34,579 bases of DNA, taken from positions 1-34,579 of IMG/VR virus record IMGVR_UViG_3300007351_000038; one strand, given 5' to 3'. A model generated the notes under the pieces. It was not told the DNA's origin. It saw only the letters and a program-made list of their open reading frames with translations, and did no database searches. The position numbers were made by a program, and so were the translations under genes. This stretch comes from a virus. Every line of letters begins with the position of its first letter. Within the stretch, counting starts at the first letter, position 1. Shown here one piece after another: positions 1-6,596 of this stretch.

Positions 1-10
1 CTTACGGTTC

Positions 11-38
11 AGTAGCATAGTTCCATATTATACTACAG
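11..38. other. dif/att-core-like inverted repeat
   Basis: A 28-bp segment divides into an 11-bp left arm AGTAGCATAGT, a 6-bp centre TCCATA and an 11-bp right arm TTATACTACAG. The inner arms GTAGCATAG and, on the other strand, GTAGTATAA match at 7 of 9 positions. This 11-6-11 geometry is that of Xer dif sites and of tyrosine-recombinase core sites. The stop codon of the neighbouring recombinase fragment lies inside it. No second copy was seen near the right phage end, so its role is inferred only. Confidence 0.3.
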
Positions 39-662
39 CCCATCTTCTTGAAAGGATCGCCTAAAGGCGAGGGGTTTGCTCCCAAAGGGGGACACTAAAT
101 TTCCGTGAGTGTCAGCCGTCCAGAAAATCTCTCGAATGGGACGCCTGCCCTTGGATTTCTCCGTTCGAATTATTGCCCTCCTTTTGTCCATTTGCAGGTC
201 TCCTATGTCGAGCGATAAAACTTCGCCGTTTCGCGCTCCCGTATCCCACAATAGGTTTATGATTGCCAAGTTGCGGATGTGCCTTGGATCGTTGGTCTTT
301 GCTGGTATCGCAGTGAGGAGTTTTTTATAACCATCCTCGTCGGCGATGCGCGGGATTTTGTATTCTTTGCTCGGTATTGGTATCAGGTTTTCGTCGATCA
401 CTTGGTATCCTTGCAGTCGGTAAAATTCAAAAAACTTTCGGAGCGCCATGCATTTGCCGACGAAGCTGTTCCGATCCCATCCAAGCTCCGCCATCCCGTT
501 GAGGTACTCCATTACTTGGTCAAGAGTGATGTACTCAATTTGAGGGTTGCGCAAAAAGAGGCAGAAAGTGCGAAGCTCCCGATCATACCCTCTGACGGTT
601 TGCTTCTTTACTTTGAATTGTCTCCAATTTTTGAATTTTTCGATTGCCTCTTTAAACTCCAT
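33..662 (-). pseudogene. Truncated tyrosine recombinase (XerC/D or phage-integrase type)
   Basis: The 209-aa product has a helical core-binding domain at about residues 1-85 and the start of the catalytic domain. The first catalytic arginine is visible in DTGARNGEVLSL and a beta-hairpin lysine region in RTEKSKGRRPIREIFW. The HxxR box and the nucleophilic tyrosine are missing: the reading frame ends after about 30 unrelated residues, and the other two frames also stop before the window edge. It is therefore shorter than the usual 300 aa and probably cannot recombine DNA alone. It is preceded by a structured leader with its own promoters. It could be the damaged integrase of the adjoining prophage or the relic of an older element. 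An unusual short functional form is less likely. Confidence 0.75.
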
Positions 663-1084: not shown

Positions 1085-1396
1085 ATGGCTCAAATCAAAA
1101 TCAATCCCTTTGAAAATCTCCGAAAAAATGCCCACGTTTGGCGGGGCGAAAATACTTTGATTTGGTATACCGAGGGCGCGGTCGGCGGTTCTTTTACCGT
1201 GCTCATCCTCTACGACTTCGGCAACGAAAAACGCCGCCTCTTTTTGGAAGTTGGCGGTTCTCAAAAAATAGAATTCAAAAACGAGGAGCTTCCCTTCGAT
1301 CAATTCGAGCATCTCAAAAAAGAAGTTGAAACAATTGAGCGGTTGCTCATCGATCCTACGAAATCTGCAGAAAAGGATTCTCGTCAGCCCATGTGA
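1085..1396 (+). CDS. Hypothetical protein, 103 aa
   Basis: The product is mixed alpha/beta, with a central beta-rich stretch (FTVLILYDFG, RRLFLEVGG) and a charged helical C-terminal half rich in Glu and Lys. No family was recognised. The composition looks like real protein, with few Cys and regular alternation of hydrophobic residues. It is transcribed toward the CD-NTase operon, and its last 41 bp overlap the 3' end of the PD-(D/E)xK gene on the other strand. No Shine-Dalgarno is seen. It could be an independent gene or part of the defence island. Confidence 0.55.
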   Translation: MAQIKINPFENLRKNAHVWRGENTLIWYTEGAVGGSFTVLILYDFGNEKRRLFLEVGGSQKIEFKNEELPFDQFEHLKKEVETIERLLIDPTKSAEKDSRQPM

Positions 1397-1859
1397 CGTT
1401 CGCTCCGCCGTCCGCAAAATGGACGAGGGCGATTTTTTTGTACGGAGGGAATGAAAGCAGGTTGTAAACCACCTTGGACAATCTGAGTATTTTTTCGGGG
1501 ATTTCATGCGTGGAAACGAGCAGGGCGTATCTCGCGTCGAATAATTCCGCGTACTTCCTCGTCTGATAAATGTCGTCGAGCTTGATCGGCTCGTCTTTCA
1601 CCTCAACGACTATAAATTCTTTTGAGGACTCGGCGTCTTTTTTCACAAAGCCAGTAAGGTCAGGCGCGGCATCTTTTTTAAGGAAAGCGAAAATCAAATC
1701 TCTGTGCCTATCAATTTGCGCTTGGATGGTGTTGCTGAATACTCCGTTCGCTGTGATTTCTAAATGTCGGCTGGTGAATTTTTCGGCGAGAATTTTATCA
1801 AGCCAGCTTTTCACTGGCTCATAAAAATCCCGCTCGAGTTTTTTGCTTGAGTCAGCCAT
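1356..1859 (-). CDS. PD-(D/E)xK nuclease-like protein, third gene of the CBASS-like operon
   Basis: The 167-aa protein carries a PD-(D/E)xK core: PD at residues 66-67 in APDLTGF, then the E-x-K strand FIVVEVKDE (E86, K88), followed by a helix and the strand RYALLVST. It resembles the N-terminal nuclease fold of type I restriction R subunits but is a single small domain. It starts 2 nt after the stop of the SLATT gene (TAACTATG), so the two are surely co-transcribed. In family terms it should be a metal-dependent DNA endonuclease. In context it may be a second effector or an accessory protein of the nucleotide-signalling system. Its activity and any nucleotide control are inferred. Confidence 0.65.
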   Translation of the reverse strand: MADSSKKLERDFYEPVKSWLDKILAEKFTSRHLEITANGVFSNTIQAQIDRHRDLIFAFLKKDAAPDLTGFVKKDAESSKEFIVVEVKDEPIKLDDIYQTRKYAELFDARYALLVSTHEIPEKILRLSKVVYNLLSFPPYKKIALVHFADGGANVTWADENPFLQIS

Positions 1860-1861
1860 AG

Positions 1862-2338
1862 TTAATCGGGTTTATGTATGCCTTCTTTAACACGCCCCCT
1901 TGCTTCCTCAAACGATTCTTTGTCTGTTGGCGGAGCAAACCTCAATAAATCGTTATACCTATCATGCAAGGTTCGCACCGCGATCGTGTATTCCTCCTCA
2001 CTCATCTTTGAGGCGAAAACTTCTCGTAATGCCCGCGCATCATGTTTGAGCGCAGTGAAATTTTTTGCCGCATTTAGGTTGTCGTAGTATTCCTTCATTG
2101 GGTTGAGGACGTTTCCGACCGCAGCAATTGTGGCAGAAACCACGCTAAGCCATACCCACCACGCTGCGACAAAACCTCCTCCCACCGCAGCGCCAAGCGC
2201 CGCCGCGATAATTGCGGGAATAAGTTGAAACCACGTGCTCTTTTTTTTGTTGCGCAATGCGATAATGTGGTGAGCTTCTGCGGTGTAAGTGCAGTTTTGC
2301 TCGATGTTGTCAGTTTCCTTGTCGTATTTTTCTCTCAT
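1862..2338 (-). CDS. SLATT-domain two-helix membrane effector
   Basis: The 158-aa protein has a short polar N-terminus, two closely spaced membrane helices (about residues 36-56 and 57-77, rich in Ala, Gly and Val) and a long helical C-terminal domain. This is the layout of SLATT proteins, the two-TM effectors paired with SMODS nucleotidyltransferases. Such effectors are thought to oligomerise and disrupt the inner membrane when the cyclic nucleotide is made, killing the infected cell. The start at 2338 is chosen because its ATG overlaps the CD-NTase stop as ATGA; an in-frame extension to 2425 would overlap that gene by 91 nt. Next comes the nuclease gene. Confidence 0.75.
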   Translation of the reverse strand: MREKYDKETDNIEQNCTYTAEAHHIIALRNKKKSTWFQLIPAIIAAALGAAVGGGFVAAWWVWLSVVSATIAAVGNVLNPMKEYYDNLNAAKNFTALKHDARALREVFASKMSEEEYTIAVRTLHDRYNDLLRFAPPTDKESFEEARGRVKEGIHKPD

Positions 2339-3264
2339 ACCTGTGAAGGAAATGCCTCCCCGAAAAGGGCACGCCATGCTTTTAATTTCGCCGTATCGCT
2401 CCCCAGCTTTTCTATGCCATTGCAATGGTCTTTTATCTGCTCAAGGGTTTTTGAAACCGCAGTTTTTTTTGCCGCGTCCAATGAACAATGAGGCGAGTGG
2501 CTGTTTGGAATTTTTATCGGATTTTCCAAATAACTTCCCGCGTAGTTGAAAAAATCGGTAATCAAAGCAGGGAATGAAATTGAAGCGTTTTTTTGTTTGT
2601 ACCAAACGACGACAGCTGGAACGATGTGCGCAGCCATAATCTCGAGGTGAAAAGAATCCAAAAGTGGGAAGTATTCGCGTTTGGCTGTTTTAAGCATCTT
2701 GATCGTCGGAATCAGCCACCCGTCCGTAAGTTTATTGTGTCTTGTTATGTGGTCGGCGTCGTGATCGTAATCCGCCAACACCCATCGCCCATCCTTAGGT
2801 ATCCAATAAGCCCTTCCCTTCGGACTGTGAGGCGTGCCGTCTGGCGAGCTTCCTATTTGATCGAGGTATGCGGGCACTAATTCGACCTTCGTGTTGTCTT
2901 GGTATTTGAATGAAACCGTCGGCTGATCTTGCTGCGGATTCATTGAGTCGTACCGCTCGCTCTCGCTGACAATTCGACGAAGTTCTCCCATAGCTGCTTG
3001 CGGACTAATCCCTCCCGTTTCCCCTACCTGAAGCCAGCGGACAAAACTCCCAAGAACAACCAAAATATCAATATCAAAAATATCGCCCTCTTTGGGCTGT
3101 ATTCTTGTTTGGCGTTGCAACGACCCGATGAGTTTTGTCTCCACACCGCTTCCGTTGTTTTCAATCACGCTGCGGACGGCATTATGCCGTCGTTGTATGA
3201 TATCGTCGAAGGTGTCGTTGAGCTCTAAATTGCCTTTGAATTTTTGAAATGCTTCGTGCACCAT
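2335..3264 (-). CDS. CD-NTase (CBASS/SMODS-type oligonucleotide cyclase)
   Basis: The 309-aa protein shows the polymerase-beta-like nucleotidyltransferase signature: GS at residues 47-48 (IGSLQRQT), then D64 and D66 in DIFDIDILVVL, and a third acidic residue E128 in KVELVPAYL. The family converts NTPs into cyclic di- or oligonucleotides when phage infection is sensed, and these activate a linked effector. Here the effector is the SLATT gene, overlapping by ATGA, followed by a nuclease. No Cap2/Cap3, HORMA or TRIP13 genes are present, so it resembles a minimal type I CBASS with an added nuclease. A promoter sits so close to the ATG that the mRNA may be leaderless. The nucleotide product cannot be deduced here. 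Confidence 0.8.
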   Translation of the reverse strand: MVHEAFQKFKGNLELNDTFDDIIQRRHNAVRSVIENNGSGVETKLIGSLQRQTRIQPKEGDIFDIDILVVLGSFVRWLQVGETGGISPQAAMGELRRIVSESERYDSMNPQQDQPTVSFKYQDNTKVELVPAYLDQIGSSPDGTPHSPKGRAYWIPKDGRWVLADYDHDADHITRHNKLTDGWLIPTIKMLKTAKREYFPLLDSFHLEIMAAHIVPAVVVWYKQKNASISFPALITDFFNYAGSYLENPIKIPNSHSPHCSLDAAKKTAVSKTLEQIKDHCNGIEKLGSDTAKLKAWRALFGEAFPSQV

Positions 3265-3270
3265 TGCGAT

Positions 3271-3299
3271 AGTTTAGCAATTTGGGGATAATTTATCAA
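3271..3299 (-). promoter_or_regulatory. Promoter of the CD-NTase operon, probably leaderless
   Basis: On the - strand, -35 TTGATA (3294-3299) and -10 TAAACT (3271-3276) are 17 nt apart. The ATG begins 7 nt after the -10, where transcription would start. The mRNA would have no leader or almost none. Confidence 0.6.
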
Positions 3300-3318
3300 C
3301 CCTTACTTTACTCCTTTT

Positions 3319-3346
3319 TTGAAGGGGTGTACAATGTTGATATAGG
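3319..3346 (+). promoter_or_regulatory. Promoter of the HTH/restriction-modification operon
   Basis: TTGAAG (3319-3324) and TATAGG (3341-3346) are separated by 16 nt. The HTH gene starts at 3359, giving a predicted leader of only about 6 nt. The site is divergent from the CD-NTase promoter within a 94-bp gap, so the two may be regulated together. Confidence 0.55.
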
Positions 3347-3358
3347 TTAGATTTTCAT

Positions 3359-3538
3359 ATGAAGAGCTTTATCACAATCAAAGAAGCCGCCGATATTCTT
3401 GGGGTGAGTTCGCTTACTTTGCGACGTTGGGATCAAGAAGGTAAACTTAAGGCAAGGCGTAATCCTTTTAATAATTACAGAATGTACGGTCGAAAAAAAA
3501 TCGAATCAATTGCTAAAAAAATAAATTCTACTAAATAG
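3359..3538 (+). CDS. Small MerR/excisionase-type HTH DNA-binding protein, 59 aa
   Basis: Translation gives a 59-aa protein with the helix-turn-helix pattern of the MerR/Xis/HTH_17 family: ITIKEAADILGVSSLTLRRW at residues 6-25, followed by a wing (DQEGKLKARRNPFNNYRMY) and a basic tail. It ends 2 nt before the methyltransferase ATG (TAGCTATG) and lies first in the operon. It may play the part that C-proteins play in type II systems, setting the order of methylase and nuclease expression, and could bind the shared divergent promoter region. An excisionase-like role is an alternative, because the island adjoins a recombinase. Confidence 0.8.
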   Translation: MKSFITIKEAADILGVSSLTLRRWDQEGKLKARRNPFNNYRMYGRKKIESIAKKINSTK

Positions 3539-3540
3539 CT

Positions 3541-4677
3541 ATGAAAGTCATCGATACAAATCAATTGCCACTGGGCGATCTAAAGACAGAATCTCGATCG
3601 TATGCATCTGTTGTTTTAAGCAAGGCGACGTTTGCCGAAGCTTTGCATGAAGCCCATACTCTAAACGACTTTGATTCTTTCAAAAATAAAATTGTTGTTT
3701 TGAAAACCGCCATCACTAACCCGAATAAAAATGAGCGTCTCACTAAAATTAATGGCAATGGGGATGGGGTCTCTCTACGAAAAGACGTGCTACTTTCCGA
3801 GTTGGATCAAGTATTGGAATCGCAGACGCTTGAGCGCGCTAAATATTATGTCCAGCGACTCAAAAAGGGAGTAGAAAAAATCAAGACAAGCAAACTCAAC
3901 GACATAAATCTTTTGCGCTGGAAAGAATACGATAACATTTTGACTGACAGCTTGTGGCTGTTGGAAAGGAGGGATAATTCGGGCGCTCACATCGCTTCGT
4001 ACTGGGGCAATTTTATTCCACAAATTCCTAATCAAACAATGCTGCGGTATACAAAAAAAGGAGAATGTGTTTTGGATACCTTCGTCGGAAGCGGCACTAC
4101 TTTAATTGAGTGTCGTCGGCTCGGAAGGCGCGGGATTGGAATCGAGTTGGACAAAGGAGTAGCAAAAAAGGCAAGTGAGCTAATTTCAGAAGAAAAAAAT
4201 CCACACAATGTTGCCACTGATGTAGTTGTCGGGGATAGCCGATCAATCGACGTAGCCGAGGTTTTAAAGGAGCGCGGGATCAAAAAAGTGCAGCTACTCA
4301 TTATGCACCCTCCTTACCACGATATAATTAAATTTTCGCAAAGCAAAAATGATCTTTCAAATGCAGCAACCACAGAAGAATTTTTGAAAATGTTTGGCGC
4401 TGTCGTTGATAACGCAACGCCTTACTTAGAAAAAGGGCGGTACTTCGCTTTGGTCATTGGTGACAAATATTCTAAGGGAGAATGGATACCTTTAGGATTT
4501 CATTGTATGAATGAGGTTCTAAAGCGTGGCTATCTGCTCAAAAGTATTATCGTAAAGAATTTTGAGGAAACCCGAGGCAAGCGAAGCCAGAAGGAGCTTT
4601 GGCGTTACAGGGCGCTGGTTGGGGGGTTCTATGTTTTTAAACACGAATACATAATGATTTTCCAGCTCAAAAAATAA
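3541..4677 (+). CDS. DNA methyltransferase (N4-cytosine/N6-adenine type) of an R-M system
   Basis: The 378-aa protein contains the AdoMet-binding motif I DTFVGSGTT (179-187) within ECVLDTFVGSG, the acidic end of strand 2 in IGIELD, and the catalytic motif IV as HPPY (256-259). HPPY replaces the usual DPPY/SPPY. The first 140 residues are a mostly helical, charged extension that may hold target recognition. It is followed after 5 nt by a PD-(D/E)xK protein, so it most likely protects host sites from that nuclease. The modified base cannot be set from motif IV because His is unusual there. Confidence 0.8.
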   Translation: MKVIDTNQLPLGDLKTESRSYASVVLSKATFAEALHEAHTLNDFDSFKNKIVVLKTAITNPNKNERLTKINGNGDGVSLRKDVLLSELDQVLESQTLERAKYYVQRLKKGVEKIKTSKLNDINLLRWKEYDNILTDSLWLLERRDNSGAHIASYWGNFIPQIPNQTMLRYTKKGECVLDTFVGSGTTLIECRRLGRRGIGIELDKGVAKKASELISEEKNPHNVATDVVVGDSRSIDVAEVLKERGIKKVQLLIMHPPYHDIIKFSQSKNDLSNAATTEEFLKMFGAVVDNATPYLEKGRYFALVIGDKYSKGEWIPLGFHCMNEVLKRGYLLKSIIVKNFEETRGKRSQKELWRYRALVGGFYVFKHEYIMIFQLKK

Positions 4678-4682
4678 AAGCC

Positions 4683-5846
4683 ATGACTACACACGTTTTT
4701 ATCGTTGATTCGATAACTTTCAAACTCCACTTGGAGTATCTTTTTGCTGGAACGGGAGCAAAGGATACCTTTGTCGATTTCAATGGTCATCCCACGACAA
4801 AATTGCACTCGACAACAGAAAATATGCTGGCTGGCATGATTGCTGATGCAAGTAGGGTAAGAAAAGGAGATTTGATAATTTTTTATTTGCAGCAAAACTT
4901 CTCAGAAAAAATATCTGAAGGAAAGTTTTTTGGAATTTTTAAAGCAAAAAGCGACTGGTCATTCTTTGACAATAATGACAATCAGCAGTATTTGAAAGCG
5001 GGGCTTGGAAAATCTCTAACCTTTAGAACTCTTATCGAGCCGTATAAAGTATACGCCGAAGGCGTTACGGAATGGGAGGCGCTGGACGAAATAAAAAACA
5101 TTCAATCTCCAAATCAAATGCTTTGGAGCTTGATCTACAGAAAGCTAAAAGGCAACCGTGGCAATACGATGATTACGATCTACGAATCGGAGCGGCTCTG
5201 CCAATTAATAAGAAATAAAAACGAACGAAATGAGCTTGATTGTAAAAATAAATTATTATCTTTTGATCCAAGAACGCAGCGAGTAATTGCGTTAGAAAAA
5301 CGTCTCAATAAATACGAGGGGCGGGCGGAAGAAATTAATGTCCTGCCGAGGTTAATAGCAAAACTGAATGATGACAAGTCCTTTGAGCCGCACCTGCAGG
5401 CATACATCGTAAAAAATATAGGCACAGGATTAAATCGTACTTTGGATGCCATTGTGAATGGCGGGAATATTGAGTGGCTCGGGAATGAGGTTTCTGTGGG
5501 AGTGGGCATGCAGCGAATCGATGTCGCTCTCTCAATCCTCAAAAATGAGCAAAGAATTATTATGCCAATAGAATTAAAGGCGGTTGAGGCAAGCGATCGT
5601 AATGCGAATCAAATCCAGCGATACATTGATTGGATCGAACAATATTACATCCCAAACAGGGAGAGTGACGTGCAGCCCGTTTTGATTTCAAAAAAAATAG
5701 AAAACAATGGAACTGACGGGTATCAAAAAATTATAGAAAGCTTCAAAAAATTCAACGCAGACAATCATCAAAGGTGTAGCCCACTAAAGTTTGTAGAATT
5801 TAGCGTGAAAAATGATGACCTTGTATTTGAGGAAGTTAAGTATTGA
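4683..5846 (+). CDS. Restriction endonuclease with PD-(D/E)xK domain and possible EVE/PUA-like N-domain
   Basis: The C-terminal half of this 387-aa protein holds a nuclease core: E235, D280 in GMQRIDVALSIL, and E297-x-K299 in IIMPIELKAVEAS. This is the order seen in many type II enzymes. The N-terminal 120 residues (RKGDLIIFYLQQ, GKFFGIFKAKS) resemble an EVE/PUA-type beta barrel, a fold that can read modified bases; this is a pattern impression only. It directly follows the methyltransferase, so it is most likely the cognate restriction enzyme. If the N-domain recognises modified bases, a modification-dependent role against phage DNA is an alternative. It ends in TGA, 9 nt before the dockerin-type gene. 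Confidence 0.7.
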   Translation: MTTHVFIVDSITFKLHLEYLFAGTGAKDTFVDFNGHPTTKLHSTTENMLAGMIADASRVRKGDLIIFYLQQNFSEKISEGKFFGIFKAKSDWSFFDNNDNQQYLKAGLGKSLTFRTLIEPYKVYAEGVTEWEALDEIKNIQSPNQMLWSLIYRKLKGNRGNTMITIYESERLCQLIRNKNERNELDCKNKLLSFDPRTQRVIALEKRLNKYEGRAEEINVLPRLIAKLNDDKSFEPHLQAYIVKNIGTGLNRTLDAIVNGGNIEWLGNEVSVGVGMQRIDVALSILKNEQRIIMPIELKAVEASDRNANQIQRYIDWIEQYYIPNRESDVQPVLISKKIENNGTDGYQKIIESFKKFNADNHQRCSPLKFVEFSVKNDDLVFEEVKY

Positions 5847-5855
5847 TTCCTTTTT

Positions 5856-6413
5856 ATGTATGAAAAGTTCTTGGCAAGTAAAAGCATTCTCTCTCTCTCT
5901 CTCTCTCTCATGCTCATCTTGCTCGCCACAGAAACCCTTGCCTATCACGGCATCCCCATCACGATAATTGGCACGACCGCACCTGACGCCTTGGTTACCG
6001 CTCGGATTCCCAAACTCGAATTCTCCCAAGCAAAACTCGCCGACGAGGAGGGGCATTTTATTTTTACTTTTAACGACGTGCCTCGGGGCGTCTATCTCCT
6101 GCGGGTCTCCGCAATGAAAAACGGATCGGTGAACGAAACGGCGCAATTACTCGGCGTTCCCGAATCCGAGGCGGTTACTCAAATGACGCTCTCGGAAATA
6201 GCCCTCCCGCTCGAGCGCGTCAAGCCGATCAAAAAAGAAAAAGCCGACCTTAATGACGACGGTCGGGTTGATCTCGTCGATCTGAGCGTCCTTTTATTTT
6301 ACTGGTCGAGTCCGATTCGTAGCCAGCCAGTCAATCCCGACGCCGATCTCAACGGCGACGGCGCTGTAAATTTAAAGGACGTCGCCCTTTTGATCAGTCG
6401 CCTGACTTTTTAG
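5856..6413 (+). CDS. Secreted protein with two dockerin type I-like repeats
   Basis: The 185-aa product has a signal peptide (residues 1 to about 29, a SLSLSLS-rich hydrophobic core ending ETLAY). A beta-sandwich domain of carboxypeptidase-regulatory/CNA-B type follows (about 30-105; GHFIFTFNDVPRGVYLLRVS is typical). Two calcium-binding dockerin-like repeats complete it: DLNDDGRVDLVDLSVLLFYW and DLNGDGAVNLKDVALLISRL. Such proteins are common surface proteins of Parcubacteria. The signal-peptide codons include a (TC)11 run, so slippage would switch the gene off. It ends 6 bp from the stop of the oppositely transcribed holin-like gene. It may be a host gene, a phage-carried surface gene, or mark the junction between defence island and phage. 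Confidence 0.75.
   Translation: MYEKFLASKSILSLSLSLMLILLATETLAYHGIPITIIGTTAPDALVTARIPKLEFSQAKLADEEGHFIFTFNDVPRGVYLLRVSAMKNGSVNETAQLLGVPESEAVTQMTLSEIALPLERVKPIKKEKADLNDDGRVDLVDLSVLLFYWSSPIRSQPVNPDADLNGDGAVNLKDVALLISRLTF
5888..5909 (+). repeat. (TC)11 dinucleotide repeat inside a coding region
   Basis: Eleven TC units encode the Ser-Leu core of the dockerin protein's signal peptide. Gain or loss of one unit shifts the frame, making this a candidate contingency (phase-variation) locus. Confidence 0.85.
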
Positions 6414-6419
6414 CTGTAG

Positions 6420-6596
6420 TTATTTACCAGCGTACGGCTGGCTCGCGTCTCCCTTGTTGCTGAAGTAAAAGGAGAATGCCATCCCTGCGAGCACTAAGAA
6501 TTGCTCGCCCGAAATCTTACCCCCGAAAAGGGCGGCAACGGTTGCGATCGCCATCAGGACGAATACGGTTTTGCTTGCTGATTTCAAAATTTCCAT
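6420..6596 (-). CDS. Small two-helix holin-like protein, 58 aa
   Basis: The 58-aa protein begins MEILKSASKT, then has a hydrophobic helix (residues 10-26), a short turn with GGKISGE, a second helix (32-46, FLVLAGMAFSFYF) and a polar tail. This two-TM pattern, the small size and the position directly after the amidase fit a class II-like holin that opens the membrane for the lysin. The junction with the amidase is TAACATG. It is the last phage gene. Similar small membrane proteins could also be antiholins. Confidence 0.7.
   Translation of the reverse strand: MEILKSASKTVFVLMAIATVAALFGGKISGEQFLVLAGMAFSFYFSNKGDASQPYAGK

What the first reader, a model, noticed from the sequence alone, without database searches (positions are those of the whole stretch)
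1356..3264. CBASS-like operon with SLATT effector and an added PD-(D/E)xK nuclease next to a CPR-type prophage
The sequence shows a CD-NTase signature (GS at 47-48, D64, D66, E128), a two-helix SLATT-like protein coupled by ATGA, and a 2-nt spaced nuclease with E86-x-K88. Known CBASS systems pair one cyclase with one effector; a membrane effector and a nuclease together, without Cap2/Cap3, is not a standard layout I know. It may be a two-effector system, one arm attacking the membrane and one DNA. CBASS in Patescibacteria, which have tiny genomes, would be notable.
Basis: partly seen in the sequence, partly recalled or inferred. Interest (0 to 1): 0.75.

Follow-up and report, generated by a model that had tools for sequence, protein, structure and literature searches.

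The report
Phage-borne CBASS immunity in tiny bacteria
A temperate virus from a lineage found in ultra-small (Patescibacteria) bacteria carries, in a swappable cargo slot, an ordinary two-gene self-destruct immune system (a signal-making enzyme plus a membrane protein) with an extra nuclease-like gene in the same apparent operon that its relatives lack.

Summary
The three genes are real. The 309-aa protein is a CD-NTase (SMODS 5e-15; predicted fold, pLDDT 92, best PDB match P. aeruginosa CdnD). The 158-aa protein is a SLATT_4 effector overlapping the cyclase stop (ATGA). This is a normal type I CBASS pair: SLATT directly follows the cyclase in 28 of 76 surveyed loci and in all 3 nearest relatives (45-50% identity). 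The 167-aa gene, 2 nt downstream, has a D...ExK motif and weak PD-(D/E)xK links, but no family call and only a poor model. No relative of it was found in those 76 loci (many with short flanks) or in one later one; three of its relatives sit beside DNA methyltransferases. So a 'two-effector CBASS' is unsupported, though not excluded. The locus lies inside, not beside, a temperate phage, in a 5-kb slot (1330-6419) near the integrase; a sister phage (portal 89%) carries a different defence set there. Syntenic prophages lie in Patescibacteria genomes, one between host genes. A CBASS cyclase profile hits 28 of 379 Patescibacteria genomes: uncommon, not exceptional.

The parts
2335..3264 (-). CD-NTase (CBASS cyclase, CdnD-like), 309 aa
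   Evidence: Pfam SMODS 5.1e-15; PADLOC Cyclase 2.6e-37; PDB phmmer 6p8u/6p82 about 1e-10; AF2 pLDDT 91.9, pTM 0.90; Foldseek best 6p82 P. aeruginosa CdnD, E 9e-16, TM 0.76/0.78
1862..2338 (-). SLATT_4 two-transmembrane effector, 158 aa
   Evidence: NCBIfam SLATT_4 8.4e-20, 71.2 bits > cut-off 55; PADLOC RTasSLATT 9.2e-21 and 2TM effector 2.6e-18; Pfam SLATT_4 24.2 bits, below its 27 cut-off; hydrophobic stretch within residues 34-79
1356..1859 (-). Putative PD-(D/E)xK nuclease, 167 aa, 2 nt after the SLATT gene
   Evidence: D67, E86-x-K88, Q99 conserved in 3 of 3 aligned; HSDR_N_2 E 0.02 below cut-off; local 33% match over residues 82-130, E 7.9e-4, to an L061 protein that is PDDEXK_3 at 7e-18, not recovered by the profile; AF2 model poor, pLDDT 45.7
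1336..1349 (-). Terminator-like hairpin just after the nuclease gene
   Evidence: 5 found against 3.4 (sd 2.3) in shuffles, so not significant alone
3271..3299 (-). Promoter-like site upstream of the cyclase
   Evidence: 9 of 12 match, 7 found against 3.5 (sd 1.9) in shuffles; weak
1330..6419 (.). Variable cargo slot: the stretch that differs from sister phage G422
   Evidence: DNA similarity to the sister covers 94-1329 (94% identity) and resumes at 6420 (83%)
33..662 (-). Tyrosine integrase, truncated near the record end (209 aa against 301 aa in the sister)
   Evidence: Pfam Phage_integrase 1.8e-8; sister ORF 301 aa; the sister's C-terminal part not found in the window
1085..1396 (+). Small conserved phage gene flanking the slot (o103); its last part runs into the slot
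   Evidence: 94% identical over 88 aa in the sister phage
3359..3538 (+). MerR/excisionase-type HTH protein, 59 aa, divergent from the cyclase
   Evidence: Pfam MerR 3.2e-12
3541..4677 (+). N6/N4 DNA methyltransferase of a neighbouring restriction-modification pair
   Evidence: Pfam N6_N4_Mtase 2.5e-19; PADLOC MTase_II 8.8e-142
4683..5846 (+). Probable restriction enzyme partner (C-terminal PD-(D/E)xK-like), 387 aa
   Evidence: PADLOC PDC-S02 1.3e-6; NCBIfam PRK00809 27.1 bits, cut-off 139; NucS_C and HSDR_N_2 sub-threshold; no PDB relative
5856..6413 (+). Dockerin-domain protein at the slot's other edge, 185 aa
   Evidence: Pfam Dockerin_1 9.8e-11

Best explanation
A type I CBASS carried as defence cargo by a temperate tailed phage of a lineage that infects Patescibacteria. 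When another phage infects the lysogen, the CdnD-like cyclase makes a cyclic oligonucleotide; this makes the two-TM SLATT protein assemble in the inner membrane and break it, so the cell dies or stops before the invader is released. The neighbouring gene is a PD-(D/E)xK-type nuclease taken up into the same transcription unit; most likely it is an accessory or hitch-hiking restriction-type nuclease, like the restriction-modification genes swapped through the same slot, and not a necessary part of the CBASS. Shown here: gene identities of the pair, conserved catalytic residues, predicted fold of the cyclase, gene overlap, position in a slot that differs from the sister phage, host phylum of related prophages. 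Inferred: nucleotide product, SLATT gating, immunity, co-transcription, and everything about what the nuclease does.
For: Cyclase identity and fold. SLATT identity. SLATT directly downstream of the cyclase in 19 of 45 genome loci, 6 of 20 Patescibacteria loci, 2 of 9 plasmid loci, 1 of 2 viral loci, and in all 3 nearest relatives L012, L013, L152. The four cyclases form one clade, support 100/100. Slot: sister phage G422 holds instead a 5mC methylase, NgoFVII-like enzyme, Vsr, GIY-YIG, HTH and Peptidase_M78 genes. Host: portal homologues at E<=1e-20 in 6 of 379 Patescibacteria genomes, four at 48-62% identity; the G155 prophage has the same gene order and lies between murC/secA and pepN-like/secD/mraY genes. 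L012's pair also lies near a protein 40% identical to the window's terminase.
Against: No activity test. The cyclase clade sits on a long branch and no member has been studied as far as I know. SLATT misses Pfam's own cut-off and the cyclase misses NCBIfam's (106 against 200 bits). The 2-nt spacing and a terminator-like site on this strand only after the nuclease gene fit the nuclease being one unit with the pair. The host of this very phage is not directly shown. No CD-NTase was found in 19 related virus records, some of them fragments, so this cargo was seen once in the lineage.
Confidence: 0.77

Rival explanations
1. Two-effector CBASS: one cyclase signal fires both the SLATT pore and the nuclease, hitting membrane and DNA together.
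For: Single apparent operon with 2-nt spacing, no terminator-like site on this strand between the genes and one after the nuclease; D...ExK present. Matched G+C of the three genes, 0.46-0.48, is weak support, as the flank on the integrase side has 0.467 too. Elsewhere L056 has a cyclase-SLATT pair followed after 13 bp by a DUF4268 protein that I read by eye as nuclease-like.
Against: Nuclease family not found in 76 other cyclase loci nor in the 3 nearest relatives; three of its relatives occur beside DNA methyltransferases, with no cyclase seen near; 167 aa leave little room for a separate nucleotide sensor (inference).
Confidence: 0.1
2. The nuclease is an ancillary regulator of the CBASS (for example trimming DNA that triggers or represses the operon), or guards the phage's own DNA.
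For: Nuclease-type ancillaries exist in some CBASS operons: the review PMC10419184 describes a Cap18 exonuclease (passages seen). Same apparent transcription unit.
Against: No conservation with the pair; similarity to Cap18 was not tested. Two of three relatives, L012 and L152, instead have a gene that I read as a LexA/S24-type repressor upstream.
Confidence: 0.08
3. The cyclase-SLATT pair is not immunity but a phage tool, for instance a lysis or host-killing module used in its own cycle.
For: It lies between an amidase-like gene (by eye) and the integrase.
Against: The other arm of the slot looks like a restriction-modification pair, and the sister has other defence-type genes there; the same pair occurs on contigs where I saw no phage genes near, e.g. 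L013 beside cysS-like and PfpI-like genes by eye.
Confidence: 0.05

Closest known systems
Type I CBASS with 2TM/SLATT effector (PADLOC 2TM effectors; SMODS-SLATT pairs)
   Same: CD-NTase followed directly by a SLATT protein, no Cap2/Cap3/HORMA/TRIP13 found in the cargo; same layout as the L003 and L004 plasmids and 19 of 45 genome loci
   Different: Cyclase at most 50% identical to any relative found, with an extra segment shared with L012, L013 and L152; nuclease-like gene added downstream; carried in a phage of a Patescibacteria-infecting lineage
P. aeruginosa CdnD (6p82, 6p8u)
   Same: Best fold and sequence match among solved structures
   Different: 22-23% identity; the title of 6p8u names a HORMA partner, and none was found here
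Defence hotspots of P2-like phages and P4 satellites (Rousset et al. 2022, PMC9122126)
   Same: 1-5 kb slot of swapped antiviral genes between two conserved phage genes (passages seen)
   Different: Here in a Patescibacteria-infecting phage lineage, between lysis-side genes and the integrase; few genomes compared
RTasSLATT (DRT-associated SLATT)
   Same: Best PADLOC profile for the SLATT protein (9.2e-21)
   Different: No reverse transcriptase among the scanned cargo proteins; partner is a cyclase
NucC / Cap4 / Cap5 nuclease effectors
   Same: Cyclic-nucleotide-gated DNA cutters in CBASS (review passages)
   Different: No match of the 167-aa protein to any solved chain by single sequence (E up to 10); by profile only hits at E 0.6 or worse, to encapsulated ferritins

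Membership tests
CBASS, type I | CD-NTase with Pol-beta-type fold and GS...DxD...D/E site | tested here: met
CBASS, type I | Effector gene next to the cyclase in one operon | tested here: met
   ATGA overlap; SLATT identity. Co-transcription itself not tested
CBASS, type I | No Cap2/Cap3, HORMA or TRIP13 partner | tested here: met
   Seven main cargo proteins and two flank proteins scanned against Pfam, PADLOC and NCBIfam; none found; small alternative ORFs not scanned
CBASS, type I | Cyclase makes a cyclic oligonucleotide that activates the effector | not testable with these tools
   needs biochemistry
CBASS, type I | Protects against phage by cell death or arrest | not testable with these tools
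   needs infection assay
SLATT_4 | Reaches curated cut-off of the family model | tested here: inconclusive
   NCBIfam met (71.2 against 55); Pfam not met (24.2 against 27); relative L013 meets Pfam (29), relative L012 has no SLATT hit in Pfam
SLATT_4 | Two transmembrane helices | tested here: inconclusive
   hydrophobic stretch within residues 34-79, long enough for two helices; hydropathy only, no topology program
PD-(D/E)xK nuclease (gene 3) | D...(D/E)xK motif conserved in relatives | tested here: met
   D67, E86, K88 in 3 of 3; in the looser 5-row alignment D67 is kept in 5 of 5 but the ExK is lost in L062's second copy
PD-(D/E)xK nuclease (gene 3) | Reaches the cut-off of a known family | tested here: not met
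   Pfam, PADLOC, NCBIfam, PHROGs
PD-(D/E)xK nuclease (gene 3) | Matching fold | tested here: inconclusive
   single-sequence model, pLDDT 45.7; matches mixed, Z 7.0 or less
CBASS effector nuclease (NucC/Cap4/Cap5) | Kept next to CD-NTases in relatives | tested here: not met
   profile found none in 76 cyclase loci, many with short flanks; none seen in L152
Patescibacteria temperate phage | Homologous prophages integrated in Patescibacteria chromosomes | tested here: met
   phylum read from the title of L020. Holds for the lineage; the host of this record is not shown

The most novel reading that the evidence does not exclude
A two-armed CBASS in which one cyclic-nucleotide signal opens a SLATT pore and also switches on a minimal 167-aa PD-(D/E)xK nuclease recruited from a restriction system, carried by a phage that guards its ultra-small host against rival phages.
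Probability: 0.1. Interest if true: 0.68.

Novelty: new member of a known kind. Interest (0 to 1): 0.42.

Why it matters
It points to a swappable defence slot in a temperate phage lineage of Patescibacteria, with CBASS as one of the alternatives. That makes phage-against-phage competition a plausible source of immunity in hosts with genomes near 1 Mb, and the slot is a place to look for new systems. The third gene offers a cheap test of whether a type I CBASS can recruit a second effector.

Tried and rejected
Single-protein scans of viral contigs with the nuclease and the cyclase found no relatives; a 3-row nuclease alignment found none either. tblastn of the nuclease: no plasmid hit, one phage hit. 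tblastn of the cyclase: 60 plasmid records, no phage record. The profile search for the nuclease family rang in 2 of 379 Patescibacteria genomes, but those two supplied rows of the profile, so it added nothing new, and it did not recover the G283/L061 match. The nuclease fold search was made on a poor model and lists nitrilases, a tRNA-synthetase editing domain and others, Z 7.0 or less; I draw nothing from it. A PDB profile search gave only hits at E 0.6 or worse. 'MADS' labels on the HTH and methylase were rejected: I saw none of the other genes that I recall for that system. Taxonomy look-up of SZUA-485 found no name; its phylum was inferred from shared genome handles. G423 (portal 58%) gave no integrase match, and on G211's contig the region beyond the tail genes is missing; both were left out of the slot comparison. 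The slots of G155 and G167 showed no defence genes to my eye; not profile-scanned. In the nearest genomes (41 relatives of G001) no portal relative was found.

Limits of the counts: the 76 cyclase loci include probable duplicates (L020/L063, L033/L064 by identical scores, L032/L034 alike), several stop soon after the SLATT gene, and the 20 Patescibacteria loci carry only about 1.5 kb of flank. In L011 and L044 a SLATT gene lies upstream of the cyclase and is not in the 28. The genome scan used two short motifs, so it is a biased sample. Of the 28 Patescibacteria genomes with cyclase-profile hits, the weaker ones may be other nucleotidyltransferases; of 14 control genomes only E. coli rang. The tree used 72 rows: the window, L152 and 70 of the 76 loci, after dropping duplicates, rows with X and short rows.
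Full report
What is there. Three minus-strand genes at 1356-3264 are confirmed. The window is a virus record of 34,579 bases. The cyclase stop and the SLATT start share ATGA, and two bases separate the SLATT stop from the nuclease start. By length alone only the 309-codon frame exceeds what shuffles give (longest stop-free run 201 codons in 300 shuffles).

Cyclase. Pfam SMODS E 5.1e-15, PADLOC cyclase E 2.6e-37, NCBIfam CBASS_cyclase_b E 2.2e-30 but below its strict cut-off (106 against 200 bits), solved CD-NTases by sequence at about 1e-10. GS, D64 and D66 are invariant in 25 aligned sequences, window included, and E128 sits at the D/E position. A model from 23 sequences has pLDDT 91.9 and pTM 0.90; its best solved match is P. 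aeruginosa CdnD (E 9e-16, TM 0.76/0.78).

SLATT protein. NCBIfam SLATT_4 above cut-off, PADLOC SLATT and 2TM effector profiles, Pfam just under cut-off, and a hydrophobic stretch within residues 34-79.

How ordinary is the pair? A genome scan gave 45 cyclase loci. A SLATT gene lies directly downstream in 19 of 45 of these, in 6 of 20 Patescibacteria loci, 2 of 9 plasmid loci and 1 of 2 viral loci, 28 of 76 in all, some of them duplicates. The nearest relatives are L012 (48-50%), L013 (45-46%) and L152 (46%); with the window they form one clade with 100/100 support on a long stem, and all three carry a SLATT gene next (L152 by eye). The review PMC10419184 names one synthase plus one Cap gene type I CBASS (passages seen). 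So the pair is a standard layout.

The third gene. No family reaches threshold. Support for a PD-(D/E)xK nuclease: D67, E86-x-K88 and Q99 conserved in the three-sequence alignment; a sub-threshold HSDR_N_2 hit (E 0.02); a 33% match over residues 82-130 (E 7.9e-4) to a Patescibacteria protein that Pfam calls PDDEXK_3 at 7e-18. Against: the family profile did not recover that protein, the ExK is not kept in one of two copies in L062, and the model is poor. Relatives: a Lachnospiraceae phage (E 6e-3) and 3 of 379 Patescibacteria genomes by single sequence; the profile found 2 of 379, both already in it. In the phage and in L060 the gene follows one that I read as LAGLIDADG-like (no Pfam hit for L060's), itself after a DNA methyltransferase (annotated in the phage; cytosine type by eye); in L062 a similar part is fused to it and a methyltransferase lies beside it, by eye. 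L061's neighbours look like housekeeping genes, by eye. A profile of this family found nothing at E up to 1 in the 76 other cyclase loci, and I see none in L152. In favour of a link: tight spacing, and a terminator-like site on this strand only after the gene (not above chance by count). G+C is 0.46, 0.48 and 0.47 for the three genes, against 0.36-0.42 for the divergent HTH, methyltransferase and enzyme genes, but the integrase flank has 0.467 as well and the dockerin gene 0.52, so this says little.

Surroundings. Capsid, portal-MuF, terminase-like, head-protease, Rep-O-like (just under cut-off) and ParB-methylase genes mark a tailed phage. The closest virus record, G422, has a portal 89% identical and an integrase 100% identical over 190 aa. 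DNA similarity breaks off at 1329 and resumes at 6420. Between these points the window has the CBASS arm and, divergently, an HTH gene, a methyltransferase, a probable restriction enzyme and a dockerin protein; G422 has a 5mC methylase (2e-93), an NgoFVII-type enzyme (6.5e-14), Vsr (2.7e-24), GIY-YIG (8.8e-5), HTH and Peptidase_M78 genes. Prophage G227 has a methylase-helicase-like set by eye and a reverse transcriptase; G155 and G167 show no defence genes to my eye. Swappable antiviral slots in phages are known from P2/P4 (PMC9122126, passages seen). A CD-NTase was not found in 19 related virus records.

Host. Portal relatives occur in 6 of 379 genomes of the phylum of L020, a Candidatus Paceibacterota record. 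In G155 the same gene order lies on a 263-kb contig between murC/secA and pepN-like/secD/mraY genes. L012's genome shares its class with a handle (G285) drawn from that phylum, and its pair sits near a protein 40% identical to the window's terminase, though no portal relative was found among 41 genomes near it. This supports a Patescibacteria phage; the host of this very record is not shown. CD-NTase hits in that phylum: 28 of 379 genomes at E<=1e-8, 12 above 100 bits. In the groundwater study PMC12259885 (passages seen) CPR genomes have fewer defence systems each but a higher density, and CBASS is listed among accessory systems; I saw no CPR-specific CBASS figure. PMC12455944 (passages seen) reports Paceibacteria prophages, two with genes for DNA methylation or carbohydrate metabolism. 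A search for Patescibacteria plus CBASS found one paper, on archaea; with prophage added, the same one; 'Candidate Phyla Radiation' with CBASS found PMC12259885. So I know of no report of this arrangement in the searched library; most subscription papers are not in it.

Mechanism. Shown: the parts and their places. Inferred: signal synthesis on infection, SLATT pore formation, death of the infected cell. The nuclease most likely came with the restriction-type gene traffic through the slot; a second-effector role is possible at about 10%.

Noticed in passing
window 3359-5846: HTH, N6/N4 methyltransferase and a 387-aa protein with weak EVE-like (by eye) and NucS/HSDR-like matches look like a second, divergent restriction-modification system in the same slot.
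   Followed up: partly
L129 9049-13176: Sister phage G422 carries a different defence-type set in the same slot: 5mC methylase, NgoFVII-like enzyme, Vsr, GIY-YIG, HTH and Peptidase_M78.
   Followed up: yes
L139 14180-15563: Prophage G227 has a reverse transcriptase (RVT_1) with a small divergent gene beside it, suggestive of a diversity-generating retroelement in a Patescibacteria prophage.
   Followed up: no
window 1-93: The first 93 bases do not align with the sister phage and cut the integrase short; possible assembly end or rearrangement.
   Followed up: partly
L012 4349-4990 and L152 2672-3307: A gene that reads as a LexA/S24-type repressor lies just upstream of the cyclase in two of the three nearest relatives (one small gene between in L152); possible damage-linked control of CBASS.
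   Followed up: no
L062 328-1962: A 544-aa protein joins a LAGLIDADG-like part (by eye) to a domain related to the window nuclease, followed by a second copy.
   Followed up: no
L056 6372-7379: A cyclase-SLATT pair followed after 13 bp by a DUF4268 protein: another possible third gene.
   Followed up: partly
L070, after the SLATT gene at 2806-3354: An ORF that looks by eye like the start of an HsdR protein begins 6 bp after the SLATT gene of a Patescibacteria cyclase-SLATT pair.
   Followed up: no
window 5856-6413: A dockerin-domain protein at the edge of the cargo slot in a phage.
   Followed up: no
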